Below, piece by piece: positions 29,001-64,000 of a stretch of 64,000 bases of DNA. Every line of letters begins with the position of its first letter. Positions within the stretch are counted from its first letter, which is position 1. Below the pieces are notes generated by a model that did no database searches, was not told the origin of the DNA, and saw only the letters and a list, made by a program, of their open reading frames with translations. The stretch comes from Sipunculus nudus (lineage: Eukaryota; Annelida; Sipuncula; Golfingiida; Sipunculidae): NCBI GenBank assembly GCA_026874595.1, contig CM049306.1:510019-574018 (forward strand), in the 5' to 3' direction. Both the position numbers and the translations under genes were made by a program.

Positions 29001-29194
29001 AGAGAGGGGGCCTGGTTGTCAAAGTAGCAATTTGCTAGCAATTTGAGGATTTAACAGAAAAAAAATTTGGCCTGGGGGTATCCGCAAATTGCTAGCAAAT
29101 TGAGACCTGGGAGACCAGGAGAGAGGGGGCCTGGTTGTCAAAGTAGCAATTTGCTAACAATTTGCGGATTTACCAGAAAAAAAAATTGGCCGGG

Positions 29195-41900: not shown

Positions 41901-44330
41901 TCAAAGTAGCAATTTGCTGGCAATTTGCGGATATACCAAAAAACAATTGGCCTGGGCATATCGGCAAATTGCCAGCAATTTGAGACCTGGGAGACCAGGA
42001 GAGAGGGGGCCTGGTTGTCAAAGTAGGAATTTGCTAGCAATTTGCGGATTTACCAGAAAAAAAAAATTGGCCGGGGGGTATCCGCAAATTGCTAGCAATT
42101 TGCCACCTGAGCGACCAGAAGAGAGGGGGCCTGGTTGTCAAAGTAGCAATTTGCAAGAAATTTGAGGATTTAACAGAAAAAAAAATTGGCCAGGGGGTAT
42201 CCGCAAATTTCTAGCAATTTGCGACCTCAGCGACCAGTAGAGAAGGGGCCTGCCTGTCAAAGTAGCAATTTGCTAGCAATTTGCGGATTTACCAGAAAAA
42301 AAAATTGGCCGGGGGGTATCGGCAAACTGCTTGCAATCTGCTACCTGGGCGCCCAGGAGAGAGGGGGCCTGGCTGTCAAAGTAGCAATTTGCTAGCAATT
42401 TGCGGATTTACCAGAAAAACAAAATTGGCCGGGGGGTATCCTGGAGAGAGGGGGCCTGGTTGTCAAAGTTGCGACCTGAGCGACCAGGAGAGAGGGGGCC
42501 TGGTTGTCAAAGAAGCAATTGGATAGCAATTTGCGGATTTACCAGAAAAAAAAAATTGGCCGGAGGTATCCCGAAATTGCTAGCAATTTGCCACCTGAGC
42601 GACCAGGAGAGAGGGGGCCTGGTTGTCAAAGTAGCAATTTGCAAGATATTTGAGGATTTAACATAAAAAAAAATTGGCCAGGGGGTATCCGCAAATTTCT
42701 AGCAATTTGCGACCTCAGCGACCAGTAGAGAAGGGGCCTGCCTGTCAAAGTAGCAATTTGCTAGCAATTTGCGGATTTACCAGAAAAAAAAATTGGCCGG
42801 GGGGGTATCGGCAAACTGCTTGCAATCTTACTACCTGGGCGCCCAGGAGAGAGGGGGCCTGTCTGTCAAAGTAGCAATTTGCTGGCAATTTGCGGATTTA
42901 CCAAAAAACAATTGGCCTGGGCATATCGGCAAATTGCCAGCAATTTGAGACCTGGGAGACCAGGAGAGAGGGGGCCTGGTTGTCAAAGTAGGAATTTGCT
43001 AGCAATTTGCGGATTTATCAGAAAAAAAAAATTGGCCGGGGGGTATCCGCAAATTGCTAGCAATTTGCCACCTGAGCGACCAGAAGAGAGGGGGCCTGGT
43101 TGTCAAAGTAGCAATTTGCAAGAAATTTGAGGATTTAACAGAAAAAAAAAATTGGCCAGGGGGTATCCGCAAATTTCTAGCAATTTGCGACCTCAGCGAC
43201 CAGTAGAGAAGGGGCCTGCCTGTCAAAGTAGCAATTTGCTAGCAATTTGCGGATTTACCAGAAAAAAAAATTGGCCGGGGGGTATCGGCAAACTGCTTGC
43301 AATCTGCTACCTGGGCGCCCAGGAGAGAGGGGGCCTGGCTGTCAAAGTAGCAATTTGCTAGCAATTTGCGGATTTACCAGAAAAACAAAATTGGCCGGGG
43401 GGTATCCTGGAGAGAGGGGGCCTGGTTGTCAAAGTTGCGACCTGAGCGACCAGAAGAGAGGGGGCCTGGTTGTCAAAGAAGCAATTGGATAGCAATTTGC
43501 GGATTTACCAGAAAAAAAAAATTGGCCGGAGGTATCCCGAAATTGCTAGCAATTTGCCACCTGAGCGACCAGGAGAGAGGGGGCCTGGTTGTCAAAGTAG
43601 CAATTTGCAAGATATTTGAGGATTTAACATAAAAAAAAAAAATGGCCAGGGGGTATCCGCAAATTTCTAGCAATTTGCGACCTCAGCGACCAGTAGAGAA
43701 GGGGCCTGCCTGTCAAAGTAGCAATTTGCTAGCAATTTGCGGATTTACCAGAAAAAAAAATTGGCCGGGGGGGTATCGGCAAACTGCTTGCAATCTTACT
43801 ACCTGGGCGCCCAGGAGAGAGGGGGCCTGTCTGTCAAAGTAGCAATTTGCTGGCAATTTGCGGATATACCAAAAAACAATTGGCCTGGGCATATCGGCAA
43901 ATTGCCAGCAATTTGAGACCTGGGAGACCAGGAGAGAGGGGGCCTGGTTGTCAAAGTAGGAATTTGCTAGCAATTTGCGGATTTACCAGAAAAAAAAAAT
44001 TGGCCGGGGGGTATCCGCAAATTGCTAGCAATTTGCCACCTGAGCAACCAGAAGAGAGGGGGCCTGGTTGTCAAAGTAGCAATTTGCAAGAAATTTGAGG
44101 ATTTAACAGAAAAAAAAATTGGCCAGGGGGTATCCGCAAATTTCTAGCAATTTGCGACCTCAGCGACCAGTAGAGAAGGGGCCTGCCTGTCAAAGTAGCA
44201 ATTTGCTAGCAATTTGCGGATTTACCAGAAAAAAAAATTGGCCGGGGGGTATCGGCAAACTGCTTGCAATCTGCTACCTGGGCGCCCAGGAGAGAGGGGG
44301 CCTGGCTGTCAAAGTAGCAATTTGCTGGCA
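38432..44330 (+). repeat. ~966 bp higher-order repeats nested in a ~3.0 kb repeat
   Basis: The unit TATCCTGGAGAGAG (near 38,469, 39,434, 41,472, 42,437 and 43,403) marks copies spaced 965-968 bp, about eight monomers. Between the second and third copies the spacing is 2,038 bp. The block from about 38,241 recurs from about 41,244, a ~3,003 bp shift. The copies are nearly identical, with small signatures such as AAAAACAAAATTGG in two of them (42,415 and 43,381). Confidence 0.85.
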
Positions 44331-47300
44331 ATTTGCGGATTTACCAGAAAAAAAAAATTGGCCGGGGGTATCCCGAAATTGCTAGCAATTTGCCACCTGA
44401 GCGACCAGAAGAGAGGGGGCCTGGTTGTCAAAGTAGCAATTTGCTAGCAATTTGAGGATTTAACAGAAAAAAAATTTGGCCTGGGGGTATCCAGGAGAGA
44501 GGGGGCCTGGTTGTCATAGTTGCGACCTGAGCGACCAGGAGAGAGGGGGCGTGGTTGTCAAAGTAGCAATTTGCAAGAAATTTGCGGATTTACCAGAAAA
44601 AAAAATGAGCCAGGGGGTATCGGCAAACTGCTTGCAATCTGTTACCTGGGCGCCCAGGAGAGAGGGGGCCTGGCTGTCAAAGTAGCAATTTGCTGGCAAT
44701 TTGCGGATATACCAAAAAACAATTGGCCTGGGCATATCGGCAAATTGCCAGCAATTTGAGACCTGGGAGACCAGGAGAGAGGGGGCCTGGTTGTCAAAGT
44801 AGCAATTTGCTAGCAATTTGCGGATTTACCAGAAAAAAAAATGGCCGGGGGGTATCGGCAAATTGCCAGCAATTTGCGGATTTACCAGGAAAAAAAATTG
44901 GCCGACCTGAGCGACAAGGAGGGAGGGGCCTGGCTGTCAAAGTAGCAATTTGCTAGCAATTTACGGATTTTCCAGAAAAAAAAAATGGCCGGGGGGTATC
45001 GGCAAATTGCCAGCAATTTGCGGATTTACCAGGAAAAAAAATTGGCCGGGGGGTATCCGCAAATTGCTAGCAATTTGCGACCTGGGCGCCCAGGAGACAG
45101 GGGGCTTGATTGTCAAAGTAGCAATTTGCTAGCAATTTGCGGATTTAACAGAAAAAAAAAATGGCCAGGGGGTATCCACAAATTTCTAGCAATTTGCCAC
45201 CTGAGCGACCAGAAGAGAAGGGGCCTGCCTGTCAAAGTGGCAATTTGCTAGCAATTTGCGGATTTACCAGAAAAAAAAAAAAAATTGGCCTGGGGGTATC
45301 GGCAAACTGCTTGCAATCTACTACCTGGGCGCCCAGGAGAGAGGGGGCCTGGCTGTCAAAGTAGCAATTTGCTAGCAATTTGCGGATTTACCAGAAAAAA
45401 AAATTGGCCGGGGGGTATCGGCAAACTGCTTGCAATTTGCTACCTGGGCGCCCAGGAGACAGGGGGCCTGTCTGTCAAAGTAGCAATTTGCTGGCAATTT
45501 GCGGATATACCAAAAAACAATTGGCCTGGGCATATCGGCAAATTGCCAGCAATTTGAGACCTGGGAGACCAGGAGAGAGGGGGCCTGGTTGTCAAAGTAG
45601 CAATTTGCTAGCAATTTTCGGATTTACCAGAAAAAAAAATTGGCCGGGGGGTATCCAGGAGAGAGGGGGCCTGGTTGTCAAAGTTGCGACCTGAGCGACC
45701 AGGAGAGAAGGGGCCTGCCTGTCAAAGTAGCAATATGCTAGCAATTTGCGGATTTACCAGAAAAAAAAATTGGCCGGGGGGTATCCAGGAGAGAGGGGGC
45801 CTGGTTGTCAAAGTTGCGACCTGAGCGACCAGGAGAGAGGGTGCGTGGTTGTCAAAGTAGCAATTTGCAAGAAATTTGCGGATTTACCAGAAAAAAAAAT
45901 TGGCCAGGGGGTATCCCCAAATTTCTAGCAATTTGCGACCTGAGCGACCAGGAGAGAAGGGGCCTGCCTGTCAAAGTAGCTATATGCTAGCAATTTGCAG
46001 ATTTTCCAGAAAAAAAAATGGCCGGGGGTTATCGGACAATTGCGAGCAATTTGCGGATTTACCAGGAAAAAAATTGGCCGACCTGAGCGACAAGGAGGGA
46101 GGGGCCTGGCTGTCAAAGTAGCAATTTGCTAGCAATTTACGGATTTTCCAGAAAACAAAAATTGGCCAGGGGGTATCCGCAAATTGCTAGCAATTTGCGA
46201 CCTGAGCGACAAGGAGGGAGGGTCCTGGCTGTCAAAGTAGCAATTTGCTAGGAATTTGCGGATTTAACAGAAAACAAAAATTGGCCAGGGGGTATCCGCA
46301 AATTGCTAGCAATTTGCGACCTGAGCGACAAGGAGGGAGGGTCCTCGCTGTCAAAGTAGCAATTTGCTAGCAATTTTCGGATTTACCAGAAAAAAAAAAA
46401 ATTGGCCAGGGGGTATCCGCAAATTTCTAGCAATTTGCGACCTCAGCGACCAGTAGAGAAGGGGCCTGCCTGTCAAAGTAGCAATTTGCTAGCAATTTGC
46501 GGATTTACCAGAAAAAAAAAATCGGCCTGGGGGTATCCATGAGAGAGGGGGCCTGGTTGTCAAATTTGCGACCTGAGCGACCAGGAGAGAGGGGGCCTGG
46601 TTGTCAAAGTAGAAATTTGCTAGCAATTTGCAGATTTTCCAGAAAAAAAATGGCCGGGGGGTATCGGCAAATTGCCAGCAATTTGTGGATTTACCAGGAA
46701 AAAAATTGGCCGACCTGAGCGACAAGGAGGGAGGGGCCTGGCTGTCAAAGTAGCAATTTGCTAGCAATTTACGGATTTTCCAGAAAACAAAAATTGGCGA
46801 GGGGATATCCGCAAATTTCTAGCAATTTGCGACCTCAGCGACCAGAAGAGAAGGGGCCTGCCTGTCAAAGTAGCAATTTGCTAGCAATTTGCGGATTTAC
46901 AAGAAAAAAAAATTGGCCGGGGGGTATCGGCAAACTGCTTGCAATTTGCTACCTGGGCGCCCAGGAGAGAGGGGGCCTGGCTGTCAAAGTAGCAATTTGC
47001 TAGCAATTTGTGGATTTACCAAAAAAATTGGCCTGGGGGTATCGGCAAATTGCCAGCAATTTCCGGATTTACCAGGGAAAAAATTGGCCGGGGGGTATCC
47101 GCAAATTGCTAGCAATTTGCGACCTGAGCAACAAGGAGGGAGGGGCCTGGCTGTCAAGGTAGCAATTTGCTAGCAATCTGCGGATTTACCAGAAAAAAAA
47201 ATTGGCCTGGGGGTATAGGCAAATTGATAGCAATTTGCGACCTAGGCGCCTAGGAGACAGGGGGCCTGGTTCTCAAAGTAGCAATTTGCTAGCAATTTAC

Positions 47301-48459
47301 GGATTTAAGAGAAAAAAAAAATTGGCCAGGGGGTATCCGCAAATTTCTAGCAATTTGCGACCTGAGCGACCAGGAGAGAAGGGGCCTGCCTGTCAAAGTA
47401 GCAATTTGCCAGCAATTTCCGGATTTACCAGAAAAACAATTGGCCGGGGGGTATCGGCAAACTGCTTGCAATTTGCTACCTGGGCGCCCAGAAGAGAGGG
47501 GGCCGGGCTGTCAAAGTAGCAATTTGCGGATTTACCAAAAAAAAATTGGCCTGGGGGTATCGGCAAATTGCCAGCAATTTGAGACCTGGGAGACCAGGAG
47601 AGAGGGGGCCTGGTTGTTAAAGTAACAATTTGCTAGCAATTTGCGGATTTACCAGTAAAAAAATTGGCCGACATGAGCGACAAGGAGGGAGGGGCCTGGC
47701 TGTCAAAGTAGTAATTTGCTAGCAATTTGCGGATTTCCAGGAAAAAAAAATTGGCCGTGGGGTATCCGCAAATTGCTAGCAATTTGCGACCTCAGCGACC
47801 AGGAGAGAGGGGGCCTGGTTGTCAAAGTAGCAATTTGCCAGCAATTTACGGATTTTCCAGAAAAAAAATGGCCGGGGGGTATCAGCAAATTGCGAGCAAT
47901 TTTCGGATTTACCAGGAAAAATACTTGGGCGGGGGGTATCCGCAAATTGCTAGCAATTTGCGACCTGGGCGACAAGGAGGGAGGGGCCTAGCTGTCAAAG
48001 TAGCAATTTGCTAGCAATTTGCGGATTTACCAGGAAAAAAATTGGCCGACCTGAGCGACAAGGAGGCAGGGGCCTGGCTGTCAAAGTAGCAATTTGCTAA
48101 CAATTTGCGGATTTATCAGAAAAACAAGTGACCCATGGTTCATGACGCTCAGCTGACTGGGAAGAGATTCGCAAAAGGAAATTTTATCATCAGAATGGTA
48201 GTATATACCCATTCAACTGAAGCATCAAACAGATTAACCAACTGGCCAAGATTTAGTCTGTATTTATATATCTCAAAAATAGAGAAAAATGTGTAAACTT
48301 TTAAACCTAGAATACAGGTAACCGACAAGTGACTACATGTATCTGCCAAAATCGGATAGTGAGGCACGGATTGAGTGGGAAGGGGAAATAGAGTGAGGAA
48401 ATAGAGTGGGAAATAGTGTGTTGCATATTAGCATGGATGTCTGCAGCCTAAATGTGTAT

Positions 48460-49300
48460 GTAGGTTGTGCCACCTACCACAAATCCAGAAAGCTGTCCAA
48501 GTTGTATACACCTGCAAAATTTTAGGCAGAAAAGTCGAACCACTACATGTATATGAGCGATTTTTGCCCATGGCAGACAAACAGACAAACACTGTGCAAA
48601 AATCTTTGCAGGTAACCCCTCCAGTTTTGTGTATGATAAAGACCTATGTGAGATCTAAACACATGCACAATTTTGGCCCCATCGGTCAAATGGTTCCTGA
48701 GATATGAGCTTGGATGTGTCCAGCGTTAACTAGAATGTAGGTGGCACCACCTGTCATAAAATCAAGAAAGCTGTCCACGATGTATAAACCTGCAAAATTT
48801 TAGGCAGTTATGTCGAACCACTACAGAGAAATGAGTGATTTTAGGCCACGGCAGACTAACAGACAGACCCTGTGCAAACATTGTTACAGGTGGCGCCACC
48901 ATTTTTTGTGTATGTTACAGAGCTATCAAAGGGCTACATTTGTATAAATTTTATTTCCTGATCGGTCAAACGGTTCCCGAGATATAAGCTTGGATGTCAT
49001 CAGCGTGAACGTGAACGTAGGTGGCGCCACCTGTCATAAAATCAAGAAAGCTATCCTGGATGTATACACATGACGAATTTCAGGTGAATTAGTCAATTCA
49101 CTGCAGAGATATGAGTGATTTTAACCCAAGGCAGATGAACAGATGGACACTGTGCAAACATGGTTACAGGTGGCGCCACCATTTTTTGTGTATGTTATAA
49201 GCAATCCAAGGGCTACATTTGTATCAATTTTATTTCCTGATCAGTCAAATGGTTCCCGAGATATGAGGGTTTATGAGTGGAAACAGACCCACAAATGGAC
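48460..49300 (+). repeat. ~280 bp internal tandem repeat, three copies
   Basis: CTGTGCAAA anchors at about 48,590, 48,869 and 49,149. Each unit has TAGGTGGCGCCACCTGTCAT- or TAGGTTGTGCCACC-type blocks, CAGAAAGCTGTCC or a close variant, ATGTATA, and a TGATCGGTCAAA..GGTTCC..GAGATA block. Confidence 0.85.
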
Positions 49301-49431
49301 ACTGGATAGAGGGAAAAGGTCAGAGGTCAATGCAAATTGGTTAGGCACCAGTTCACATGTGACCCGATAATAGGTGTAAGTTTGGGAAAAATCAGTCCAT
49401 TAGTCTCCGAGGAGCTCTCTGGAAACGAACG

Positions 49432-49494
49432 CCGCCGCGGCGGAGGAACTCTGTCAAAAACATAGTATCCGCAAAACTTCGTTTTGGCGGATAC
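49432..49494. repeat. GC palindrome and strong hairpin in the element
   Basis: CCGCCGCGGCGG (49,432-49,443) is a perfect 12 bp palindrome. GTATCCGCAAAAC (49,465-49,477) pairs with GTTTTGGCGGATAC (ending 49,494) with one bulged base, leaving a loop of about three bases. Both are kept in the second copy (57,193-57,204 and 57,226-57,255). Confidence 0.8.
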
Positions 49495-49499
49495 AAAAA

Positions 49500-50790
49500 T
49501 ACAGGTGGCTCCACCAGTCTGCAGAAACTAATAAAAACACTTAATGGTCAATATCCATGCAAAAAAATCATGGTGATCTCTGCATTAGTTGTTCAGATAC
49601 TTCAGTTTTTGTATCAAATTGTCCATTATTCTGAGGGATACTTCGGAGTCCTATAGCTTGAAGGATATGGGTAACAGAGACCTAATTTCAAGTTTCCACA
49701 GGCACCTTTCATGGGCCTCCTTGCATGACAAGAATGGAGATTCTAGGTCCAGTTGTTGCGATTTGTACCCTGTTGACAGATAACCACATCTTTAAAGGTC
49801 TCAAAAAAAAAATTCGTAAAAATTTGAAAAAAAATAGAGGTGGCACACCCAGTCTGCAGAAACTGAAGGAACAGCTCATGATCAATATGTATGCCGAAAA
49901 TCATGACCATCAGTGTTGTAGTTATTGAAATACTGCAGTTTTTGTATCAAATTTTCCATTATTCTGGGGGGGGGGTATTTTGGACCCATACAGCTTAAAG
50001 AATATGGGTAACAGAGACCTAATTTCAAGTTTCCATGCAGACTTTTCATGGGTCTCCCTGTGTGTCAAGAATGAAGATTCTTGGTCCAGTTTTTATGATT
50101 TGTGCCCTGTTAACAGATGTTCATATCTTTAAAGGTCTCAAAAATACAGAAAAATTTCGTAAAAAAAAACGAACAAATACAGGTGGTGCCACCAGTCTGC
50201 AGAAACTTATGAAACACTCCATGATCAATATCCATGCAAACAATTATGGTTATCTCTGCATTAGTTGTTCAGATACTTTAGCTTTTGTATCAAATTTTCC
50301 ATTATTCTGAGCTGTACTTTGGAGTGCCATAGCTCAAAGGATATGGGTAACAGAGACCAAATTTCAGGTTTCCATGGAGACTTATCATGGGTCTCCCTGT
50401 GTGTCAAGAACGAAGATTCTAGGTCCAGTCGTTACGATTTGTACCCTGTTGACAGATAACTACATCCTTAAAGGTCTCAAAAATGGAGAAAACAATTCGT
50501 GAACATTGAAAAATACAGGTGGCGCCACCAGTCTGCACAAACTGATAAACATCTCATGATCAATATGTATGCCAAAAATGAAGACCATCAGTGATGTAGT
50601 TATTGAGATATTGAAGTTTTTGTATGAAATTTTTTACTATTCTGGGGGGTACTTTGGGGCCCCATAGCTCAAAGGATATGGGTACCAGAGACCTAATTTC
50701 TGGTTTCCAAGGATATTTTTATGGACCTCTCAGAATCCCAAGTTACAAGGTTCTAGGTCCAGCGGTTACGATTTGTGCCTGGTTAACGGC
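49500..50790 (+). repeat. ~336 bp internal tandem repeat, four copies
   Basis: CAGTCTGCAGAAACT-type anchors at 49,515, 49,850, 50,193 and 50,529. Units share CTCATGATCAATAT, CCATTATTCTG, GATATGGGTAACAGAGACC, TTTCCA.G and TTCTAGGTCCAG. They are diverged from one another and so predate the duplication of the element. Confidence 0.85.
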
Positions 50791-50835
50791 CGGACAGACG
50801 GACAGACGGACAGACGGACAGACGGACGACGGACA
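50791..50835 (+). repeat. (GACGGACA)n microsatellite
   Basis: About four GGACAGAC repeats followed by GGACGACGGACA. Adjacent to the 3' hairpin of the element, as at 1,048-1,128. Confidence 0.9.
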
Positions 50836-50880
50836 AAGAGTGATCGCTATAGCTCAGATGACTTTCAGTCAGCTGAGCTA

Positions 50881-53800
50881 AAAAAATTGGCCGGGGGGTA
50901 TCCGCAAATTGCTAGCAATTTGCGACCTCAGCGACCAGGAGAGAGGGGGCCTGGTTGTCAAAGTAACAATTTGATAGCAATTTACGGATTTTCCAGAAAA
51001 AGAAATGGCCGGGGGGTATCGGCAAATTGCTAGCAATTTGCGGATATGCCAGGAAAAAAAATTGGCCGGGGGGTATCCGCAAATAGCCAGCAATTTGAGA
51101 CCTGGGAGACCAGGAGAGAGGGGGCCTGGTTGTGAAAGTAGCAATTTGCTAGCAATTTGGGGATTTACCAGGAAAAAAAAATTGGCCGGGGGGTATCGGC
51201 AAATTGCCAGCAAATTGCGACCTGAGCGACCAGGAGAGAGGGGGCCTGGTTGTCAAAGTTGCGACCTGAGCTACCAGGAGAGAGGGGGCCTGGTTGTCAA
51301 AGTAGCAATTTGCTAGCAATTTGCGGATTTACAAGAAAAAAAAAAATTGGTCGTTGGGTATCCGGAAATTGCTAGCAATTTGCGACTTCAGCGACCAGGA
51401 GAGAGGGGGCCTGGTTGTGAAAGTAAAAATTTGCTAGCAATTTGCGGATTTTCATGAAAAAAAATGGCCAAGGGGTATCGGCAAATTGCCAGCAATTTGC
51501 GGATTTACCAGGAAAAAAATTTGGCCAACCTGAGCGAAAAGGAGGGAGGGGCCTGGCTGTCAAAGTAGCAATTTGCTAGCAATTTGCGGATTTACCAGAA
51601 AAAATAAATTGGCAGGGGGGTATCCAGGATAGAGGGGGCCTGGTTGTCAAAGTAAAAATTTGCTAGCAATTTGCGGATTTTCATGAAAAAAAATGGCCAA
51701 GGGGTATCGGCAAATTGCCAGCAATTTGCGGATTTACCAGGAAAAAAATTTGGCCAACCTGAGCGAAAAGGAGGGAGGGGCCTGGCTGTCAAAGTAGCAA
51801 TTTGCTAGCAATTTGCGGATTTACCAGAAAAAAAAATTGGCCGGGGGGTATCCGCAAATTGCTAGCAATTTGCGACCTCAGCGACCAGGAGAGAGGGGGC
51901 CTGGTTGTCAAAGTAGCATTTTGCTAGCAATTTGCGGATTTACCAGAAAAAAAAAATTGGCAGGGGGGTATCCAGGATAGAGGGGGCCTGGTTGTCAAAG
52001 TTGCGACCTGAGCGACCAGGAGAGAGGGGGCGTGGTTGTCAAAGTAGCAATTTGCAAGAAAATTGCGGATTTACCAGAAAAAAAAATTGGCCAGGGGGTA
52101 TCCCCAAATTTCTAGCAATTTGCGACCTGAGCGACCAGGAGAGAAGGGCCCTGCCTGTCAAAGTAGCAATATGCTAGCAATCTGCAGATTTTCCAGAAAA
52201 AAAAAATGGCCGGGGGTTATCGGACAATTGCGAGCAATTTGCGGATTTACCAGGAAAAAAATTGGCCGACCCGAGCGACAAGGAGGGAGGGGCCTGGCTG
52301 TCAAAGTAGCAATTTGCTAGCAATTTACGGATTTTCCAGAAAACAAAAATTGGCCAGGGGGTATCCGCAAATTGCTAGCAATTTGCGACCTGAGCGACAA
52401 GGAGGGAGGGTCCTGGCTGTCAAAGTAGCAATTTGCTAGCAATTTGCGGATTTAACAGAAAACAAAAATTGGCCAGGGGGTATCCGGAATATCCGCAAAT
52501 TGCTAGCAATTTGTGACCTGAACGACAAGGAGGGAGGGTCCTGGCTGTCAAGGTAGCAATTTGCTAGCAATTTGCGGATTTATCAGAAAAAAAAAAATTG
52601 GCCGGGGGGTATCCAGGAGGGAGGGGGCCTGGTTGTCAAAGTTGCGACCTGAGCGACCAGGAGAGAGGGGGCCTGGTTGTAAAAGTAGCAATTAGCTAGC
52701 AATTTGCGGATTTACCAGAAAAAAAAATTGGCCGGGGGTATCCCGAAATTGCTAGCAATTTGCCACCTGAGCGACCAGGAGAGAGGGGGCCTGGTTGTCA
52801 AAGTAGCAATTTGCAAGAAATTTGCGGATTTAACAGAAAAAAAAAATTGGCCAGGGGGTATCCGCAAATTTCTAGCAATTTGCGACCTCAGCGACCAGTA
52901 GTGAAGGGGCCTGCCTGTCAAAGTAGCAATTTGCTAGCAATTTGCGGATTTACCAGAAAAAAAATTGGCCGGGGGGTATCGGCAAACTGCTTGCAAATTG
53001 CTACCTGGGCGCCCAGGAGAGAGGGGGCAATTTGCTAACAATTTGCGGATTTAACAGAAAACAAAAATTGGCCAGGGGGTATCCGGAATATCCGCAAATT
53101 GCTAGCAATTTGCGACCTGAACGACAAGGAGGGAGGGTCCTGGCTGTCAAGGTAGCAATTTACTAGCAATTTGCGGATTTACCAGAAAAAAAAAAAAATT
53201 GGCCGGGGGGTATCCAGGAGAGAGGGGGCCTGGTTGTCAAAGTTGCGACCTGAGCGACCAGGAGAGAGGGGGCCTGGCTGTCAAAGTAGCAATTTGCTAG
53301 CAATTTGTGGATTAACTAAAAAAATTGGCCTGGGGGTTTCGGCAAATTGCCAGCAATTTGCGGATTTACCAGGAAAAAAATTTGCCGGGGGGCATCCGCA
53401 AATTGCTAGCAATTTGCGACCTGAGCGACAAGGAGGAAGGGGCCTGGCTGTCAAGGTAGCAATTTGCTAGCAATCTGCGGATTTACCAGAAAAAAAAATT
53501 GGCCTGGGGGTATAGGCAAATTGATAGCAATTTGCGACCTGGGCGCCCAGGAGACAGGGGGCCTGGTTGTCAAAGTAGCAATTTGCTAGCAATTTGCGGA
53601 TTTAAGAGAAAAAAAAATTGGCCAGGGGGTATCCGCAAATTTCTAGCAATTTGCGACCTGAGCGACCAGGAGAGAAGGGGCCTGGCTGTCAAAGTAGCAA
53701 TTTGCCAGCAATTTCCGGATTTACCAGAAAAACAATTGGCCGGGGGGTATCGGCAAACTGCTTGCAATTTGCTACCTGGGCGCCCAGGAGAGAGGGGGCC

Positions 53801-55902
53801 CGGCTGTCAAAGTAGCAATTTGCGGATTTACCAAAAAAAAAATTGGCCTGGGGGTATCGGCAAATTGCCAGCAATTTGAGACCTGGGAGACCAGGAGAGA
53901 GGGGGCCTGGTTGTCAAAGTAGCAATTTGCTAGCAATTTGCGGATTTACCATAAAAAAAAAATTGGCCGTGGGTATCCAGGAGAGAGGGGGCCTGGTTGT
54001 CAAAGTTGCGACCTGAGCGACCAGGAGAGAGGGGGCGTGGTTGTCAAAGTAGCAATTTGCAAGAAATTTGCGGATTTACCAGAAAAAAAAATGAGCCAGG
54101 GGGTATCCGCAAATTTCTAGCAATTTGCGACCTGAGCGACCAGGAGAGAAGGGGCCTGCCTGTCAAAGTAGCAATTTGCTAGCAATTTGCAGATTTTCCA
54201 GAAAAAAAAATGGCCGGGGGGTATCGGCAAATTGCGAGCAATTTGCGGATTTACCAGGAAAAAATTGGCTTACATGAGCGACAAGGAGGGAAGGGCCTGG
54301 GTGTCAAAGTAGTAATTTCCTAGCAATTTGCGAATTTCCAGGAAAAAAAAAGTTGGCCGTGGGGTATCCGCAAATTGCTAGCAATTTGCGACCTCAGCGA
54401 CCAGGAGAGAGGGGGCCTGGTTGTCAAAGTAGCAATTTGCCAGCAATTTACGGATTTTCCAGAAAAAAAATGGCCGGGGGGTATCAGCAAATTGCGAGCA
54501 ATTTGAGACCTGGGAGACCAGGAGAGAGTGGGCCTGGTTGTGAAAGTAGCAATAAGCTAGCAATTTGGGGATTTATCAGGAAAAAAAAATTGGCCGGGGG
54601 GTATCGGCAAATTGCCAGCAATTTGCGACATGAGCGACCAGGAGAGAGGGGGCCTGGTTGTCAAAGTTTCGACCTGAGCTACCAGGAGAGAGGGGGCCTG
54701 GTTGTCAAAGTAGCAATTTGCTAGCAATTTGCGGATTTACCAGAAAAAAAAAATTGGTCGTTGGGTATCCGGAAATTGTTAGCAATTTGCGACTTCAGTG
54801 ACCAGGAGAGAGGGGGCCTCGTTGTCAAAGTAAAAATTTGCTAGCAATTTGGGATTTTCATGAAAAAAATTGGCCAAGGGGTATCGGCAAATTGCAAGCA
54901 ATTTGCGGATCTACCAGGAAAAAAATTTGGCCGACCTGAGCGAAAAGGAGGGAGCGGCCTGGCTGTCAAAGTAGCAATTTGCTAGCAATTTGCGGATTTA
55001 CCAGAAAAAAAAAAAAATTGGCCGTGGGGTATCCTCAAATTGCTAGCAATTTGCGACCTCAGCGACCAGGAGAGAGGGGGCCTGGTTGTCAAAGTAGCAT
55101 TTTGCTAGCAATTTGCGAATTTACCAGAAAAAAAAAATTGGCCGAGGGTATCCAGGAGAGAGGGGGCCTGGTTGTCAAAGTTGCGACCTGAGCGACCAGG
55201 AGAGAGGGGGCGTGGTTGTCAAAGTAGCAATTTGTAAGAAATTTGCGGATTTACCAGAAAAAAAAATTGGCCAGGGGGTATTCCCAAATTTCTAGCAATT
55301 TGCGACCTGAGCGACCAGGAGAGAAGGAGCATGTCTGTCAAAGTAGCAATATGCTAGCAATTTGCAGATTTTCCAGAAAAAAAAATCGCCGTGGGTTATC
55401 GGACAATTGCGAGCAATTTGCGGATTTACCAGGAAAAAAATTGGCCGACATGAGCGACAAGGAGGGAGGGGCCTGGCTGTCAAAGTAGCAATTTGCTAGC
55501 AATTTGCGGATTTCCAGGAAAAAAAAAATTGGCCGTGGGGTATCCGCAAATTGCTAGCTATTTGCGACCTCAGCGACCAGGAGAGAGGGGGCCTGGTTGT
55601 CAAAGTAGCAATTTGCCAGCAATTTACCGATTTTCCAGAAAAAAAATGGCCGGGGGGTATCAGCAAATTGCGAGCAATTTTCGGATTTACCAGGAAAAAT
55701 ACTTGGGCGGGGGGTATCCGCAAATTGCTAGCAATTTGCGACCTGGGCGACAAGGAGGGAGGGGCCTAGCTGTCAAAGTAGCAATTTGCTAGCAATTTGC
55801 GGATTTACCAGGAAAAAAATTGGCCGACCTGAGCGACAAGGAGGCAGGGGCCTGGCTGTCAAAGTAGCAATTTGCTAACAATTTGCGGATTTATCAGAAA
55901 AA
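50881..55902 (+). repeat. Satellite array, block 2
   Basis: About 5.0 kb of the same monomer in the same orientation as block 1. It includes distinctive variants such as CGTTGGGTATCCGG, CAAGGGGTATCGG, and AAAACAAAAATTGGCCAGGG followed by a GTATCCGGAATATCCGC duplication. Most of it is repeated in block 3. Confidence 0.97.
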
Positions 55903-57406
55903 CAAGTGACCCATGGGTCATGACGCTCAGCTGACTGGGAAGAGATTCGCAAAAGGAAATTTTATCATCAGAATGGTAGTATATACCCATTCAACTGAAG
56001 CATCAAACAGATTAACCAACAGGCCAAGATTTAGTCTGTATTTATATATCTCAAAAAATAGAGAAAAATGTGTAAACTTTTAAACCTAGAATACAGGTAA
56101 CCGACAAGTGACTACATGTATCTGCCAAAATCGGATAGTGAGGCACGGATTGAGTGGCAAGGGGAAAAAGAGTGAGATATGTTGCATATTAGCATGGATG
56201 TCTGCAGCCTTAATGTGTATGTAGGTTGTGCCACCTACCACAAATCCAGAAAGCTGTCCAAGTTGTATACACCTGCAAAATTTTAGGCAGAAAAGTCGAA
56301 CCACTACATGTATATGAGCGATTTTTGCCCATGGCAGACAAACAGACAAACACTGTGCAAAAATCTTTGCAGGTAACCCCTCCAGTTTTGTGTATGATAA
56401 AGACCTATGTGAGATCTAAACACATGCACAATTTTGGCCCAATCGGTCAAATGGTTCCTGAGATATGAGCTTGGATGTGTCCAGCGTTAACTAGAATGTA
56501 GGTGGCACCACCTGTCATAAAATCAAGAAAGCTGTCCACGATGTATAAACCTGCAAAATTTTAGGCAGTTATGTCGAACCACTACAGAGAAATGAGTGAT
56601 TTTAGGCCACGGCAGACTAACAGACAGACCCTGTGCAAACATTGTTACAGGTGGCGCCACCATTTTTTGTGTATGTTACAGAGCTATCAAAGGGCTACAT
56701 TTGTATAAATTTTATTTCCTGATCGGTCAAACGGTTCCCGAGATATAAGCTTGGATGTCATCAGCGTGAACGTGAACGTAGGTGGCGCCACCTGTCATAA
56801 AATCAAGAAAGCTATCCTGGATGTATACACATGACGAATTTCAGGTGAATTAGTCAATTCACTGCAGAGATATGAGTGATTTTAACCCAAGGACGATGAA
56901 CAGATGGACACTGTGCAAACATGGTTACAGGTGGCGCCACCATTTTTTGTGTATGTTATAAGCAATCCAAGGGCTACATTTGTATCAATTTTATTTCCTG
57001 ATCAGTCAAATGGTTCCCGAGATATGAGGGTTTATGAGTGGAAACAGACCCACAAATGGACACTGGATAGAGGGAAAAGGTCAGAGGTCAATGCAAATTG
57101 GTTAGGCACCAGTTCACATGTGACCCGATAATAGGTGTAAGTTTGGGAAAAATCAGTCCATTAGTCTCCGAGGAGCTCTCTGGAAACGAACGCCGCCGCG
57201 GCGGAGGAACTCTGTCAAAAACATAGTATCCGCAAAACTTCGTTTTGGCGGATACAAAAATACAGGTGGCTCCACCAGTCTGCAGAAACTAATAAAAACA
57301 CTTAATGGTCAATATCCATGCAAAAAAATCATGGTGATCTCTGCATTAGTTGTTCAGATACTTCAGTTTTTGTATCAAATTGTCCATTATTCTGATACTA
57401 TTCTGG
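55903..57406 (+). mobile_element. Second copy of the pearl-like element, internally deleted
   Basis: It begins CAAGTGACCCATGGGTCATG and follows the full copy closely up to 57,395, with only scattered differences and a 17 bp gap near 56,160. It then jumps. The 11 bp TACTATTCTGG (57,396-57,406) equals 50,635-50,645, and the next base is satellite equal to 50,899. Relative to the full copy, 49,635-50,634 (1,000 bp) and 50,646-50,898 (253 bp) are missing. Three of the four ~336 bp repeats, the microsatellite and the 3' hairpin are lost. It could not move by itself. Confidence 0.88.
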
Positions 57407-60400
57407 TATCCGCAAATTGCTAGCAATTTGCGACCTCAGCGACCAGGAGAGAGGGGGCCTGGTTGTCAAAGTAACAATTTGATAGCAATTTACGGATTTT
57501 CCAGAAAAAAAATGGCCGGGGGGTATCGGCAAATTGCTAGCAATTTGCGGATATGCCAGGAAAAAAAATTGGCCGGGGGGTATCCGCAAATTACCAGCAA
57601 TTTGAGACCTGGGAGACCAGGAGAGAGGGGGCCTGGTTGTGAAAGTAGCAATTTGCTAGCAATTTGGGGATTTACCAGGAAAAAAAAATTGGCCGGGGGG
57701 TATCGGCAAATTGCCAGCAAATTGCGACCTGAGCGACCAGGAGAGAGGGGGCCTGGTTGTCAAAGTTGCGACCTGAGCTACCAGGAGAGAGGGGGCCTGG
57801 TTGTCAAAGTAGCAATTTGCTAGCAATTTGCGGATTTACAAGAAAAAAAAAAATTGGTCGTTGGGTATCCGGAAATTGCTAGCAATTTGCGACTTCAGCG
57901 ACCAGGAGAGAGGGGGCCTGGTTGTGAAAGTAAAAATTTGCTAGCAATTTGCGGATTTTCATGAAAAAAAATGGCCAAGGGGTATCGGCAAATTGCCAGC
58001 AATTTGCGGATTTACCAGGAAAAAAATTTGGCCAACCTGAGCGAAAAGGAGGGAGGGGCCTGGCTGTCAAAGTAGCAATTTGCTAGCAATTTGCGGATTT
58101 ACCAGAAAAAAAAAATTGGCAGGGGGGTACCAAGGATAGAGGGGGCCTGGTTGTCAAAGTAAAAATTTGCTAGCAATTTGCGGATTTTCATGAAAAAAAA
58201 TGGCCAAGGGGTATCGGCAAATTGCCAGCAATTTGCGGATTTACCAGGAAAAAAATTTGGCCAACCTGAGCGAAAAGGAGGGAGGGGCCTGGCTGTCAAA
58301 GTAGCAATTTGCTAGCAATTTGCGGATTTACCAGAAAAAAAAATTGGCCGGGGGGTATCCGCAAATTGCTAGCAATTTGCGACCTCAGCGACCAGGAGAG
58401 AGGGGGCCTGGTTGTCAAAGTAGCATTTTGCTAGCAATTTGCGGATTTACCAGAAAAAAAAAATTGGCAGGGGGGTATCCAGGATAGAGGGGGCCTTTTT
58501 GTCAAAGTTGCGACCTGAGCGACCAGGAGAGAGGGGGCGTGGTTGTCAAAGTAGCAATTTGCAAGAAATTTGCGGATTTACCAGAAAAAAAAATTGGCCA
58601 GGGGGTATCCCCAAATTTCTAACAATTTGCGACCTGGGCGACCAGGAGAGAAGGGGCCTGCCTGTCAAAGTAGCAATATGCTAGCAATTTGCAGATTTTC
58701 CAGAAAAAAAAAATGGCCGGGGGTTATCGGACAATTGCGAGCAATTTGCGGATTTACCAGGAAAAAAATTGGCCGACCTGAGCGACAAGGAGGGAGGGGC
58801 CTGGCTGTCAAAGTAGCAATTTGCTAGCAATTTACGGATTTTCCAGAAAACAAAAATTGGCCAGGGGGTATCCGCAAATTGCTAGCAATTTGCGACCTGA
58901 GCGACAAGGAGGGAGGGTCCTGGCTGTCAAAGTAGCAATTTGCTAGCAATTAGCGGATTTAACAGAAAACAAAAATTGGCCAGGGGGTATCGGGAATATC
59001 CGCAAATTGCTAGCAATTTGCGACCTGAACGACAAGGAGGGAGGGTCCTGGCTGTCAAGGTAGCAATTTGCTAGCAATTTGCGGATTTATCAGAAAAAAA
59101 AAAAATTGGCCGGGGGGTATCCAGGAGAGAGGGGGCCTGGTTGTCAAAGTTGCGACCTGAGCGACCAGGAGAGAGGGGGCCTGGTTGTAAAAGTAGCGAT
59201 TAGCTAGCAATTTGCGGATTTACCAGAAAAAAAAAAATTGGCCGGGGGTATCCCGAAATTGCTAGCAATTTGCCACCTGAGCGACCAGGAGAGAGGGGGC
59301 CTGGTTGTCAAAGTAGCAATTTGCAAGAAATTTGCGGATTTAACAGAAAAAAAAATTGGCCAGGGGGTATCCGCAAATTTCTAGCAATTTGCGACCTCAG
59401 CGACCAGTAGTGAAGTGGCCTGCCTGTCAAAGTAGCAATTTGCTAGCAATTTGCGGATTTACCAGAAAAAAAAAATTGGCCGGGGGGTATCGGCAAACTG
59501 CTTGCAAATTGCTACCAGGGCGCCCAGGAGAGAGGGGGCAATTTGCTAACAATTTACGGATTTAACAGAAAACAAAAATTGGCCAGGGGGTATCCGGAAT
59601 ATCCGCAAATTGCTAGCAATTTGCGACCTGAACGACAAGGAGGGAGGGTCCTGGCTGTCAAGGTAGCAATTTGCTAGCAATTTGCGGATTTACCTGAAAA
59701 AAAAAAAAATTGGCCGGGGGGTATCCAGGAGAGAGGGGGCCTGGTTGTCAAAGTTGCGACCTGAGCGACCAGGAGAGAGGGGGCCTGGCTGTCAAAGTAG
59801 CAATTTGCTAGCAATTTGTGGATTAACTAAAAAAATTAGCCTGGGGGTTTCGGCAAATTGCCAGCAATTTGCGGATTTACCAGGAAAAAAATTTGCCGGG
59901 GGGTATCCGCAAATTGCTAGCAATTTGCGACCTGAGCGACAAGGAGGGAGGGGCCTGGCTGTCAAGGTAGCAATTTGCTAGCAATCTGCGGATTTACCAG
60001 AAAAAAAAATTGGCCTGGGGGTATAGGCAAATCGATAGCAATTTGCGACCTGGGCGCCCAGCAGACAGGTGGCCTGGTTGTCAAAGTAGCAATTTGCTAG
60101 CAATTTGCGGATTTAAGAGAAAAAAAAAATTGGCCTGGGGGTATCGGCAAATTGCCAGCAATTTGAGACCTGGGAGACCAGGAAAGAGGGGGCCTGGCTG
60201 TCAAAGTAGCAATTTGCTAGCAATTTGTGGATTAACTAAAAAAATTGGCCTGGGGGTTTCGGCAAATTGCCAGCAATTTGCGGATTTACCAGGAAAAAAA
60301 TTTGCCGGGGGGTATCCGCAAATTGCTAGCAATTTGCGACCTGAGCGACAAGGAGGGAGGGGCCTGGCTGTCAAGGTAGCAATTTGCTAGCAATCTGCGG

Positions 60401-63400
60401 ATTTACCAGAAAAACAATTGGCCGGGGGGTATCGGCAAACTGCTTGCAATTTGCTACCTGGGCGCCCAGGAGAGAGGGGGCCTGGCTGTCAAAGTAGCAA
60501 TTTGCGGATTTACCAAAAAAAAAATTGGCCTGGGGGTATCGGCAAATTGCCAGCAATTTGAGACCTGGGAGACCAGGAGAGAGGGGGCCTGGTTGTCAAA
60601 GTAGCAATTTGCTAGCAATTTGCGGATTTACCAGAAAAAAAATTGGCCGGGGGTATCCAGGAGAGAGGGGGCCTGGTTGTCAAAGTTGCGACCTGAGCGA
60701 CCAGGAGAGAGGGGGCCTGGTTGTCAAAGTAGCAATTTGCAAGAAATTTGCGGATTTACCAGAAAAAAAAATGAGCCAGGGGGTATCCGCAAATTTCTAG
60801 CAATTTGCGACCTGAGCGACCAGGAGAAAAGGGGCCTGCCTGTCAAAGTAGCAATTTGCTAGCAATTTGCAGATTTTCCAGAAAAAAAAATGGCCGGGGG
60901 GTATCGGCAAATTGCGAGCAATTTGCGGATTTACCAGGAAAAAATTGGCTGACATGAGCGACAAGGAGGGAGGGGCCTGGGTGTCAAAGTAGTAATTTCC
61001 TAGCAATTTGCGAATTTCCAGGAAAAAAAAAGTTGGCCGTGGGGTATCCGCAAATTGCTAGCAATTTGCGACCTCAGCGACCAGGAGAGAGGGGGCCTGG
61101 TTGTCAAAGTAGCAATTTGCCAGCAATTTACGGATTTTCCAGAAAAAAAAATGGCCGGGGGGTATCAGCAAATTGCGAGCAATTTGAGACCTGGGAGACC
61201 AGGAGAGAGTGGGCCTGGTTGTGAAAGTAGCAATAAGCTAGCAATTTGGGGATTTACCAGGAAAAAAAAATTGGCCGGGGGGTATCGGCAAATTGCCAGC
61301 AATTTGCGACCTGAGCGACCAGGAGAGAGGGGGCCTGGTTCTCAAAGTAGCAATTTGCTAGCAATTTGCGGATTTACCAGAAAAAAAAAATTGGTCGTTG
61401 GGTATCCGGAAATTGTTAGCAATTTGCGACTTCAGTGACCAGGAGAGAGGGGGCCTCGTTGTCAAAGTAAAAATTTGCTAGCAATTTGGGATTTTCATGA
61501 AAAAAAATGGCCAAGGGGTATCGGCAAATTGCAAGCAATTTGCGGATTTACCAGGAAAAAAATTTGGCCGACCTGAGCGAAAAGGAGGGAGCGGCCTGGC
61601 TGTCAAAGTAGCAATTTGCTAGCAATTTGCGGATTTACCAGAAAAAAAAATTGGCCGTGGGGTATCCTCAAATTGCTAGCAATTTGCGACCTCAGCGACC
61701 AGGAGAGAGGGGGCCTGGTTGTCAAAGTAGCATTTTGCTAGCAATTTGCGAATTTACCAGAAAAAAAAATTGGCCGAGGGTATCCAGGAGAGAGGGGGCC
61801 TGGTTGTCAAAGTTGCGACCTGAGCGACCAGGAGAGAGGGGGCGTGGTTGTCAAAGTAGCAATTTGTAAGAAATTTGCGGATTTACCAGAAAAAAAAATT
61901 GGCCAGGGGGTATCCCCAAATTTCTAGCAATTTGCGACCTGAGCGACCAGGAGAGAAGGGGCCTGCCTGTCAAAGTAGCAATATGCTAGCAATTTGCAGA
62001 TTTTCCAGAAAAAAAAATCGCCGGGGGTTATCGAACAATTGCGAGCAATTTGCGGATTTACCAGGAAAAAAATTGGCCGACCTTAGCGACAAGGAGGGAG
62101 GGGCCTGGCTGTCAAAGTAGCAATTTGCTAGCAATTTATGGATTTTCCAGAAAACAAAAATTGGCCAGGGGGTATCCGCAAATTGCTAGCAATTTGCGAC
62201 CTGAGCGACAAGGAGGGAGGGTCCTGGCTGTCAAAGTAGCAATTTGCTAGCAATTTGCGGATTTCACATAAAAACAAAAATTGGCCAGGGGGTATCCGCA
62301 AATTGCTAGCAATTTGCTACCTGGGCACCCAGGAGACAGGGGGCCTGGTTGTCAAAGTAGCAATTTGCTAGCAATTTGCGGATTTAAGAGAAAAAAAAAC
62401 ATGGCCAGGGGGTATCCGCAAATTTCTAGCAATTTGCGACCTGGGCGACCAGAAGAGAAGGGGCCTGCCTGTCAAAGTATCAATTTGCTAGCAATTTGCG
62501 GATTTACCAGAAAAAAAATTGGCCGGGGGGTATCGGCAAACTGCTTGCAATTTGCGACTTCAGCGACCAGGAGAGAGGGGGCCTGGTTGTCAAAGTAACA
62601 ATTTGATAGCAACTTAAGGATTTTCCAGAAAAAAAAATGGCCGGGGGGTATCGGCAAATTGCTAGCAATTTGCGGATATGCCAGGAAAAAAAAATTGGCC
62701 GGGGGGGATCCGCAAATTGCCAGCGATTTGAGACCTGGGAGACCAGGAGAGAGGGGGCCTGGTTGTGAAAGTAGCAATTTGCTAGCAATTTGGGGATTTA
62801 CCAGGAAAAAAAAATTGGCCGGGGGGTATCGGCAAATTGCCAGCAAATTGCGACCTGAGCGACCAGGAGAGAGGGGGCCTGGTTGTCAAAGTTGCGACCT
62901 GAGCTACCAGGAGAGAGGGGGCCTGGTTGTCAAAGTAGCAATTTGCTGGCAATTTGCGGATTTACCAGAAAAAAAAAATTGGTCGTTGGGTATCCGGAAA
63001 TTGCTAGCAATTTGCGACTTCAGCGACCTGGAGAGAGGGGGCCTGGTTGTCAAAGTAAAAATTTGCTAGCAATTTGCGGATTTTCATGAAAAAAAATGGC
63101 CAAGGGGTATCGGCAAATTGCCAGCAATTTGCGGATTTACCAGGAAAAAAATTTGGCCAACCTGAGCGAAAAGGAGGGAGGGGCCTGGTTGTCAAAGTAG
63201 CAATTTGCTGGCAATTTGCGGATTTACCAGAAAAAAAAAATTGGTCGTTGGGTATCCGGAAATTGCTAGCAATTTGCGACTTCAGCGACCTGGAGAGAGG
63301 GGGCCTGGTTGTCAAAGTAAAAATTTGCTAGCAATTTGCGGATTTTCATGAAAAAAAATGGCCAAGGGGTATCGGCAAATTGCCAGCAATTTGCGGATTT

Positions 63401-64000
63401 ACCAGGAAAAAAATTTGGCCAACCTGAGCGAAAAGGAGGGAGGGGCCTGGCTGTCAAAGTAGCAATTTGCTAGCAATTTGCGGATTTACCAGAAAAAAAA
63501 AAAATTGGCCGTGGGGTATCCGCAAATTGCTAGCAATTTGCGACCTCAGCGACCAGGAGAGAGGGGGCCTGGTTGTCAAAGACGCATTTTGCTAGCAATT
63601 TGCGGATTTACCAGAAAAAAAAAATTGGCCGGGGGGTTTCCATGAGAGAGGGGGCCTGGTTGTCAAAGTTGCGACCTGAGCGACCAGGAGAGAGGGGGCG
63701 TGGTTGACAAGGTAGCAATTTGCAAGAAATTTGCGGATTTACTAGAAAAAAAAATTGGCCAGGGGGTATCCCCAAATTTCTAGCAATTTGCGACCTGAGG
63801 GACCAGGAGAGAAGGGGCCTGCCTGTCAAAGTAGCAATATGCTAGCAATTTGCAGATTTTCCAGAAAAAAAAAATCGCCGGGGGTTATCGGACAATTGCG
63901 AGCAATTTGCGGATTTACAAGGAAAAAAATTGGCCGACCTGAGCGACAAGGAGGAAGGGGCCTGGCTGTCAAAGTAGCAATTTGCTAGCAATTTACGGAT
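57407..64000 (+). repeat. Satellite array, block 3 (runs off the window)
   Basis: Continuation of the same satellite. From 57,407 to about 60,110 it matches block 2 from 50,899 at offsets of 6,507-6,511 bp. An extra ~170 bp of internal duplication follows (about 60,130-60,300), and the match resumes at offsets of 6,632-6,682 to about 62,030. From about 62,550 the block 2 start is repeated a third time (offset about 11.6 kb), without the element in front of it. Confidence 0.95.

What the first reader, a model, noticed from the sequence alone, without database searches (positions are those of the whole stretch)
47650..57406. Transposon captured and co-amplified as part of a satellite higher-order repeat
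The second element copy has the same left satellite flank, including private variants, and the same right flank. It is therefore a duplication of the interrupted satellite, not a second insertion. Offsets of 7,778, 7,761 and 6,507 bp trace the event. It shows directly how a mobile element becomes part of a satellite repeat unit, a step often proposed for satellite birth.
Basis: seen in the sequence. Interest (0 to 1): 0.75.

Follow-up and report, generated by a model that had tools for sequence, protein, structure and literature searches.

The report
Satellite array inside a giant transposon
A small jumping element that landed in a repetitive satellite array was duplicated together with it, and the satellite array itself lies inside a very large jumping element whose relatives carried such composites to several chromosomes.

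Summary
A 7.78-kb block of 119-bp satellite containing a 2.76-kb element (47,630-55,406) is tandemly duplicated at 55,407-62,081. Segments differ by 0.3-2.7%, and the second element copy is truncated. It is a duplication, not a second insertion.

The captured element has the anatomy of a non-autonomous Helentron (HINE), inserted in the A-run of a monomer. An array on contig C8 carries three HINE-satellite units.

The satellite is the interior of a giant, apparently non-autonomous TIR transposon. Window 15,667 is its 5' end; the matching 3' end is at C1:650,710 (125 kb apart, partly unread). Of 22 head/tail pairs tested, 10 have exact in-register 8-bp target-site duplications, against 0 of 462 mismatched pairs. 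The window's copy has none. Five copies on five contigs share two captured HINEs, 239 bp apart, at 98-100% identity where compared, in different flanks. So captured HINEs moved as passengers of a transposon now 26-42 kb long at those sites.

This is a new variant of known satellite-carrying transposons. Reads are needed to exclude assembly artefacts.

The parts
15667..15697 (+). 5' terminal inverted repeat of the outer (giant) transposon; GGGGAACTGTCGGT core at 15,676
   Evidence: same 5' edge, with variation in the outermost bases, at the 20 other heads fetched; inverse of the tail end at C1:650,710
15667..15777 (+). unique 5' head of the outer transposon before the first satellite monomers
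15777..48122 (+). 119-bp satellite, first stretch (contains the 28-bp palindrome ATCCGCAAATTGCTAGCAATTTGCGGAT)
47630..55406 (+). duplicated unit, copy 1 (left satellite, HINE, right satellite)
55407..62081 (+). duplicated unit, copy 2
48123..50881 (-). captured element copy 1: HINE-like (non-autonomous Helentron), 5' end at about 50,881; outer A bases are ambiguous with the A-run of the target
50866..50877 (-). 5' subterminal inverted repeat (CTCAGCTGACTG on the minus strand) followed by its complementary IR
50790..50836 (-). GTCY-type microsatellite (GTCCGTCT)n on the minus strand
49495..50724 (-). central tandem repeats, period about 335, 3.6 copies
48425..49264 (-). central tandem repeats, period about 280, 3.0 copies
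48148..48159 (-). 3' subterminal inverted repeat (CAGTCAGCTGAG on the minus strand)
48129..48142 (-). 3' palindrome (TGACCCATGGGTCA; one mismatch in copy 1, perfect in copy 2 at 55,907-55,920)
55901..57395 (-). captured element copy 2, lacking its 5' part
57396..57406 (.). 11-bp stretch equal to element 50,635-50,645 between truncated element and satellite (deletion scar)
57407..64000 (+). satellite continues beyond the window (read to C1:604,018 and again from C1:632,400 to about 633,020)

Best explanation
Three nested layers. (1) The outer layer is a giant, apparently non-autonomous TIR DNA transposon: about 30-bp imperfect TIRs, 8-bp target-site duplications, a unique head, a long variable 119-bp satellite array, and a tail with a second tandem repeat. 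(2) Non-autonomous Helentrons (HINEs), reported to prefer T-rich targets, inserted repeatedly into the T-run (A-run on the satellite strand) of satellite monomers. (3) Recombination between misaligned monomers tandemly duplicated stretches holding a HINE, giving two units in this window and three in a C8 array. In the lineage that produced the copies on C2, C7, C8 (61.4 Mb), C10 and C17, two HINEs 239 bp apart were already captured, and the transposon, now 26-42 kb at those sites, inserted at five places. Shown: the duplication, the nested anatomy, TIRs, TSDs and the shared composite. Inferred: unequal exchange as the duplication mechanism, a transposase supplied in trans, and cut-and-paste movement. 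Copy 2's truncation is best read as two deletions: three ~335-bp internal repeats (about 1,000 bp), then about 252 bp ending in the shared G-run GGGGGGTA of element and satellite (inferred).
For: Duplication. HINE anatomy. HINE ends in the A-run at the junctions read: and at two array ends found without a junction pattern. C8 three-unit array. Heads: 40 scored of 134 candidates, 32 of the 40 begin at window 15,669; 20 heads fetched share the edge. Tails. Homology of C17 with each of four other loci stops at the same base, an inverse of the head, after a probe 4.5-5.7 kb further out had shown none. TSDs: 10 of 22 pairs exact and in register, control 0 of 462; an 11th, C8:61.4M, is GTAACAGA out of register. 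Composite at five loci; E2 98.6-99.9% and 239-bp spacer 98.8-100% (five loci), E3 98.3-98.8% (three loci read whole). TIR pattern 349 sites, reversed control 0.
Against: The window's own outer copy (C1:525,685-650,710) has no TSD, and 12 of 22 pairs lack an exact in-register one. The register was fixed, which used a looser longest-match test: at 7 bp or more 13 of 22 own pairs against 5 of 462 mismatched pairs, at 8 or more 12 against 4. C1:604,019-632,399 and 641,501-650,639 were not read, so the 125-kb span rests on its two ends; most other copies were also read only in part. The C1 tail is interrupted at about C1:637,802 by what looks like an LTR retrotransposon. No transposase was found: the stop-to-stop frames listed in L032 (1-5,600), L066, L085 and L090 were short or satellite-derived; only one 82-aa frame was scanned against Pfam, without a match. 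Some arrays (C4, C8 30.8M, C12) pass into different sequence directly 3' of the satellite, though C8 and C12 have a tail end further on; for C4 no tail was listed. Extra heads inside arrays (C8, C10, C15:42.0M) are unexplained. The junction patterns specify both the A-run and the orientation, so they cannot show that HINEs avoid other sites or orientations. Mismatch density in the C1 duplication rises from 0.3% to 2.7% across the right flank, so it is not one clean event of one age.
Confidence: 0.84

Rival explanations
1. Two independent HINE insertions into the same hotspot (the A-run) of neighbouring monomers.
For: The HINE/satellite junctions read are in the A-run, so a hotspot is plausible, although the patterns were made to find only such junctions.
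Against: The pair shares kilobases of flanking satellite: the left flank is 99.0% to its partner, at most 92.1% elsewhere in 94 kb. The element parts differ by 0.67% while the other copies scored are at most 95% identical over about 530 bp.
Confidence: 0.02
2. Assembly artefact: two haplotypes, or one locus, laid in tandem.
For: A 1-2% difference is within marine-invertebrate heterozygosity (recalled; the organism is not known), no reads were available, and the unit is shorter than a long read.
Against: The array holds many other nested duplications; copy 2 has a structural deletion; a separate locus on C8 has three such units at 3.8-5.5% divergence; the window has no N.
Confidence: 0.08
3. 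The five composite loci were spread by segmental duplication or ectopic exchange between satellite arrays, not transposition.
For: Satellite arrays on different chromosomes exchange sequence in other species (recalled); 12 of 22 copies lack an exact in-register TSD.
Against: Homology begins and ends at inverse termini, the flanks differ at each locus, and four of the five composite loci have exact in-register 8-bp TSDs (C2, C7, C10, C17), the fifth shifted.
Confidence: 0.07
4. Head and tail are separate small elements that happened to insert at the edges of pre-existing satellite arrays.
For: The TIR core has 349 sites at up to one mismatch, many not paired here.
Against: At the 22 loci that I paired by order and strand, 10 have matched 8-bp duplications just outside head and tail, against 0 of 462 mismatched pairs.
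Confidence: 0.03

Closest known systems
HINE / Cg_HINE non-autonomous Helentrons of oysters (PMC7492417: abstract, outline, sections 7 and 9 read; PMC4067079: passages read)
   Same: subTIR plus complementary IR, GTCY microsatellite, central tandem repeats, 3' subTIR plus palindrome, T-rich target, no target duplication reported; the captured element of the window fits. The oyster paper already shows satellite-like repeats dispersed by transposons.
   Different: There the satellite-like repeats are inside the HINE. Here the HINE sits inside a different, longer satellite and is amplified with it.
Tetris, a foldback DNA transposon of Drosophila virilis (PMC4079207: passages read)
   Same: [quoted passage not shown] TSDs of 8-9 bp in its three complete copies.
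   Different: Tetris has a foldback structure with tandem repeats in its TIRs. Here the TIRs agree over about 30 bp, arrays reach tens of kb, and other transposons have been captured inside and moved along.
MITEs with internal arrays that expand into satellites (Scalvenzi and Pollet model, as described in the review PMC12628747: passages read)
   Same: Array expansion inside a TIR element and dispersal by it.
   Different: Those are miniature elements. Here copies with exact TSDs span 6.6 to 55 kb end to end, and the window's copy spans 125 kb without TSD.
LINEs targeted into CUS-TR24 satellite of Cuscuta europaea (PMC8091179: passages read)
   Same: A transposon lineage inserts at preferred positions of a satellite monomer.
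   Different: In the passages read, duplication of the inserted LINE with its satellite, and movement of the satellite by a transposon, are not described.

Membership tests
HINE (non-autonomous Helentron), for the captured element | subterminal inverted repeats of about 11-15 bp | tested here: met
   CTCAGCTGACTG at 48,148-48,159 and its complement at 50,866-50,877
HINE (non-autonomous Helentron), for the captured element | palindrome near the 3' end | tested here: met
   TGACCCATGGGTCA, perfect in copy 2 at 55,907-55,920, one mismatch in copy 1
HINE (non-autonomous Helentron), for the captured element | GTCY microsatellite and central tandem repeats | tested here: met
HINE (non-autonomous Helentron), for the captured element | T-rich target, no target-site duplication | tested here: inconclusive
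   A-run of the satellite on the plus strand, and A next to the ends of other copies; the A bases may in part belong to the element, the patterns required the A-run, and absence of a TSD was judged by eye only
HINE (non-autonomous Helentron), for the captured element | mobilised by an autonomous Helentron (Rep/helicase with endonuclease) | not tested
   no search for the autonomous partner was made
TIR DNA transposon, for the outer unit | terminal inverted repeats at both ends of dispersed copies | tested here: met
TIR DNA transposon, for the outer unit | fixed-length target-site duplication | tested here: met
   exact 8 bp in register in 10 of 22 pairs, control 0 of 462; not met for the window's own copy and 11 others
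TIR DNA transposon, for the outer unit | encoded transposase, needed to assign a superfamily | tested here: inconclusive
   no long non-satellite frame among those listed in four loci; one 82-aa frame scanned, no Pfam match; superfamily left open
Foldback element (Tetris kind) | long, internally repetitive TIRs | tested here: not met
   head and tail agree only over about 30 bp (by eye)

The most novel reading that the evidence does not exclude
Long satellite arrays in this genome are cargo of a giant non-autonomous TIR transposon family (copies with exact TSDs span 6.6 to 55 kb end to end; the window's copy spans 125 kb without TSD), and transposons captured inside the arrays ride along as passengers, so satellite higher-order repeats with captured elements are dispersed between chromosomes by transposition.
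Probability: 0.75. Interest if true: 0.68.

Novelty: new variant of a known kind. Interest (0 to 1): 0.6.

Why it matters
How satellite arrays reach non-homologous chromosomes is an old question. The 2025 review consulted says that TEs are proposed to facilitate dispersal and that dispersed organisation by TEs has been shown in some genomes (PMC12628747, passages). Here the route can be read in one assembly with internal landmarks: an array with two HINEs 239 bp apart sits between the same TIRs and different flanks at five loci, four with exact 8-bp target duplications and the fifth with a shifted one. That puts capture before dispersal and gives a minimum size for what moved. It also makes array growth testable: the distance between head and the shared HINE is about 7-8 kb (C7, C17), 11 kb (C2), 17 kb (C8) and 24 kb (C10) by coordinates.

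Tried and rejected
Independent insertion of the two HINEs was rejected on shared flanks. The idea that the HINEs on C1 and C15 (32.7 Mb) descend from one captured copy was set aside: the C15 element has a different left-end variant, and the left junction match is only 86%. The idea that the ACACTCTAAG sequence after the satellite is the outer element's 3' end was rejected: it is a separate repeat family, found in unrelated flanks in the eight other copies read. A retroposon-like reading of the outer unit (5' head, A-run 3' end), suggested by arrays that stop in the A-run (C12, C15:1.68M), was dropped when the inverse 3' terminus and TSDs were found. Rfam found nothing in the window at gathering thresholds. 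Promoter/terminator scan at chance level. Literature searches listed no paper whose title or shown abstract describes a TIR transposon with a tens-of-kb satellite array and captured HINEs; only open-access PMC papers are held, and five of the listed papers were opened.

Rows not used: from the 40 scored heads, the heads already in fetched loci and the 40 best tails I paired 22 loci, by order and strand, for which both flanks were fetched. Unpaired heads (for example C4:20.4M and those at C15:52.6-53.0M) and unpaired tails (for example C3:45.09M, C17:57.3M, C12:51.3M, C16:47.1M) were left out. C10:22.69M was first looked at from an inner head (no TSD) and then from the outermost head listed (TSD present); C14 was tested at its outer head; the other pairs without TSD did not get such a second look.
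Full report
What was checked. The window is C1:510,019-574,018 of a 1.43-Gb assembly of 153 contigs. From 15,777 on it is a 119-bp satellite. Aligning the segments gives mismatches of 4/473 in the left flank, 10/1,494 in the element, then 2/603, 13/999 and 34/1,267 along the right flank. The remainder of the unit, 53,700-55,449, matches 60,382-62,081 at 95.8%. So 47,630-55,406 is followed head to tail by its copy, 55,407-62,081. The left flank is 99.0% identical to its partner and at most 92.1% identical to any other place in the 94 kb compared. Among the other genome copies scored (39 candidates scored of 1,479) none exceeds 95% over 48,120-48,650, although the terminal ~80 bp are 96-100% identical in many copies. 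A second insertion is excluded by the flanks. The unequal divergence across the right flank (0.3 to 2.7%) says that conversion or further exchange followed the duplication.

The captured element. Read on the minus strand it begins with a subterminal inverted repeat (AGCTCAGCTGACT), its complementary repeat and a GTCC/GTCT microsatellite, continues with two blocks of central repeats (335-bp and 280-bp periods), and ends with the second subterminal repeat and the palindrome TGACCCATGGGTCA. That is the anatomy described for HINEs of mites and oysters (PMC4067079 passages; PMC7492417 sections 7 and 9). It lies in the A-run of a satellite monomer (T-run on the other strand), in keeping with the T-rich target preference reported there. 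The other HINE/satellite junctions read are also in the A-run and in one orientation relative to the satellite, but the patterns used to find most of them demanded both, so this is not an unbiased sample; two array ends on C4 and C8 that meet a related left end in the A-run were found without a pattern. Copy 2 lost its HINE 5' part. Its 11-bp scar equals bases 50,635-50,645 of copy 1, so the loss fits two deletions: about 1,000 bp, three central repeats, and about 252 bp that ends in the G-run shared by element and satellite (sequence reading; mechanism inferred).

More units elsewhere. The junction patterns found six left and ten right junctions in the genome at exact match, with no match to the reversed patterns. 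On C8 at 30.78 Mb three HINE copies sit in one array, with pairwise identity of 94.5-96.2% over 3.0-3.7 kb including satellite. On C2, C7, C8 (61.4 Mb), C10 and C17 a different pair of HINEs (E2 and E3), 239 bp of satellite apart, is shared (E3 read whole at C8, C10 and C17). E2 is 98.6-99.9% identical among the five loci, the spacer 98.8-100%, and E3 98.3-98.8% among those three.

The satellite is the inside of a transposon. The three arrays whose 5' edges I had read (C1, C8 30.8M, C15 32.7M) share that edge in different flanks; a fourth stretch printed, on C12, was not an array's outer edge. A search with the edge (window 15,640-15,800) scored 40 of 134 candidates, and 32 of the 40 begin at window 15,669; several of the 40 lie in the same array. 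Twenty fetched heads share the edge, GAGGGAGGCGGGGAACTGTCGG with variation in the outermost bases; their flanks differ, two of them (C10, C12) containing satellite. Following the 3' side of the C17 array, a probe 4.5-5.7 kb further out showed no likeness to C8; nearer in, homology with C8, C2, C10 and C7 stops at one and the same base in all four comparisons, and the last bases, GGGAAAAACCGACAGTTCCCC, are the inverse of the head. A search with the tail found the partner ends of other arrays, for the window's array at C1:650,710. For 22 head/tail pairs the 8 bp just outside the element were compared. Ten are identical (ATGATGCA, GGAACCTA, CATTTCTG, CAAGTGCA, TCTCTGCA, CGTTGTGG, GCCCTTTG, CTGAAGGA, ACAAATCG, AATCTCTG), none of the other twelve is within one mismatch, and 0 of 462 mismatched pairs is identical or within one mismatch. 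The register had been seen in the looser test (longest match of 7 bp or more: 13 of 22 own, 5 of 462 mismatched; 8 or more: 12 and 4). One more, C8:61.4M, has GTAACAGA on both sides at a shifted register. The window's own copy has no such repeat, which may mean an exchange between copies, an altered end, or simply loss.

Sizes and order of events. Spans between the ends at the composite loci are 25.9 kb (C17), 26.7 kb (C7), 29.2 kb (C2), 35.2 kb (C8, 61.4 Mb) and about 42 kb (C10, from its outer head). Among all ten exact-TSD copies they run from 6.6 kb (C7:62.0M) to 55 kb (C17:29.4M), and among the 22 pairs from about 3.2 kb (C10:69.44M) to 125 kb (C1) (coordinates; interiors mostly unread). 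The tail of the five composite loci is 11.7-11.8 kb by coordinates and 92.8-99.5% identical to C17 where compared. Since the same two HINEs, the same spacer and the same tail recur between different flanks, capture preceded dispersal, and what moved was at least about 18 kb (tail, E3, spacer, E2; sum of the parts). The distance between head and E2 now ranges from about 7 to 24 kb, so arrays changed length during or after the moves.

What it is and is not. The captured element meets the structural HINE features tested; its target preference and lack of TSD were not tested rigorously. The outer unit meets the tested features of a TIR DNA transposon, but I found no transposase and do not assign a superfamily; 8-bp duplications fit several (recalled). 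Transposons that carry, seed or disperse satellites are known (HINEs in oysters, Tetris in Drosophila virilis, MITEs with internal arrays; papers named in Closest known systems). What I did not see in the eight search listings is a TIR transposon with a satellite array of this length that has captured other transposons and moved with them; the library holds open-access papers only.

Limits. Everything rests on one assembly without reads. Parts of the C1 outer copy were not read (C1:604,019-632,399 and 641,501-650,639). The C1 tail is cut at about C1:637,802 by an LTR-retrotransposon-like insert. Some arrays pass into other sequence on the 3' side of the satellite before the tail, and several carry additional heads inside the array (C8, C10, C15:42.0M); I have no explanation for those heads. 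Searches of the assembly score only the best candidates, so counts are lower bounds.

Noticed in passing
C8:30,782,792-30,796,192 (L024-L026); C15:42,010,740-42,013,644; C10:22,690,363 and 22,691,672: Extra copies of the outer transposon's 5' head lie inside satellite arrays (seven exact cores in L024/L025, three heads about 1.4 kb apart on C15), so the terminus itself has been drawn into the repeat.
   Followed up: partly
window 15,777-48,122 and further satellite: The monomer contains a perfect 28-bp palindrome, ATCCGCAAATTGCTAGCAATTTGCGGAT, whole or as halves; it may favour slippage or hairpin formation.
   Followed up: no
C1:633,025 (L057) and the tails at C17, C8, C10, C2, C7: An independent repeat family beginning ACACTCTAAGAA with GGGTTCTT motifs (68 first-look candidates) adjoins the satellite at the same monomer position in four arrays read, and by coordinates in two more, a further shared passenger.
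   Followed up: partly
C1:about 637,802 (L068): An LTR-retrotransposon-like sequence interrupts the tail of the C1 copy.
   Followed up: no
L017 (C15:32,713,700-32,717,300): The satellite switches strand within the array and an E2-type HINE lies in the inverted part, again in the A-run and in the same orientation relative to the satellite.
   Followed up: partly
C4:20.376M (L074, L050) and C8:30.782M (L024): Two arrays run into another element with left end AACAAGGCCTACAGGCCTAATGCG, again in the A-run, suggesting a further HINE-like family using the same target.
   Followed up: no
L066 about 1,736-2,903 (C17 tail), also near C10:69.44M: A second tandem repeat with a similar TTGCTAGCAAATTGC core lies just inside the 3' end of the outer transposon, possibly an old relative of the main satellite.
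   Followed up: no
window 1,095-1,123: A HINE-type terminal hairpin lies in the non-satellite left part of the window.
   Followed up: no
whole assembly: The TIR core occurs at 349 places with up to one mismatch (reversed control 0; only the first 100 were listed), many far from the paired heads and tails, so the family may include satellite-free or autonomous members.
   Followed up: no
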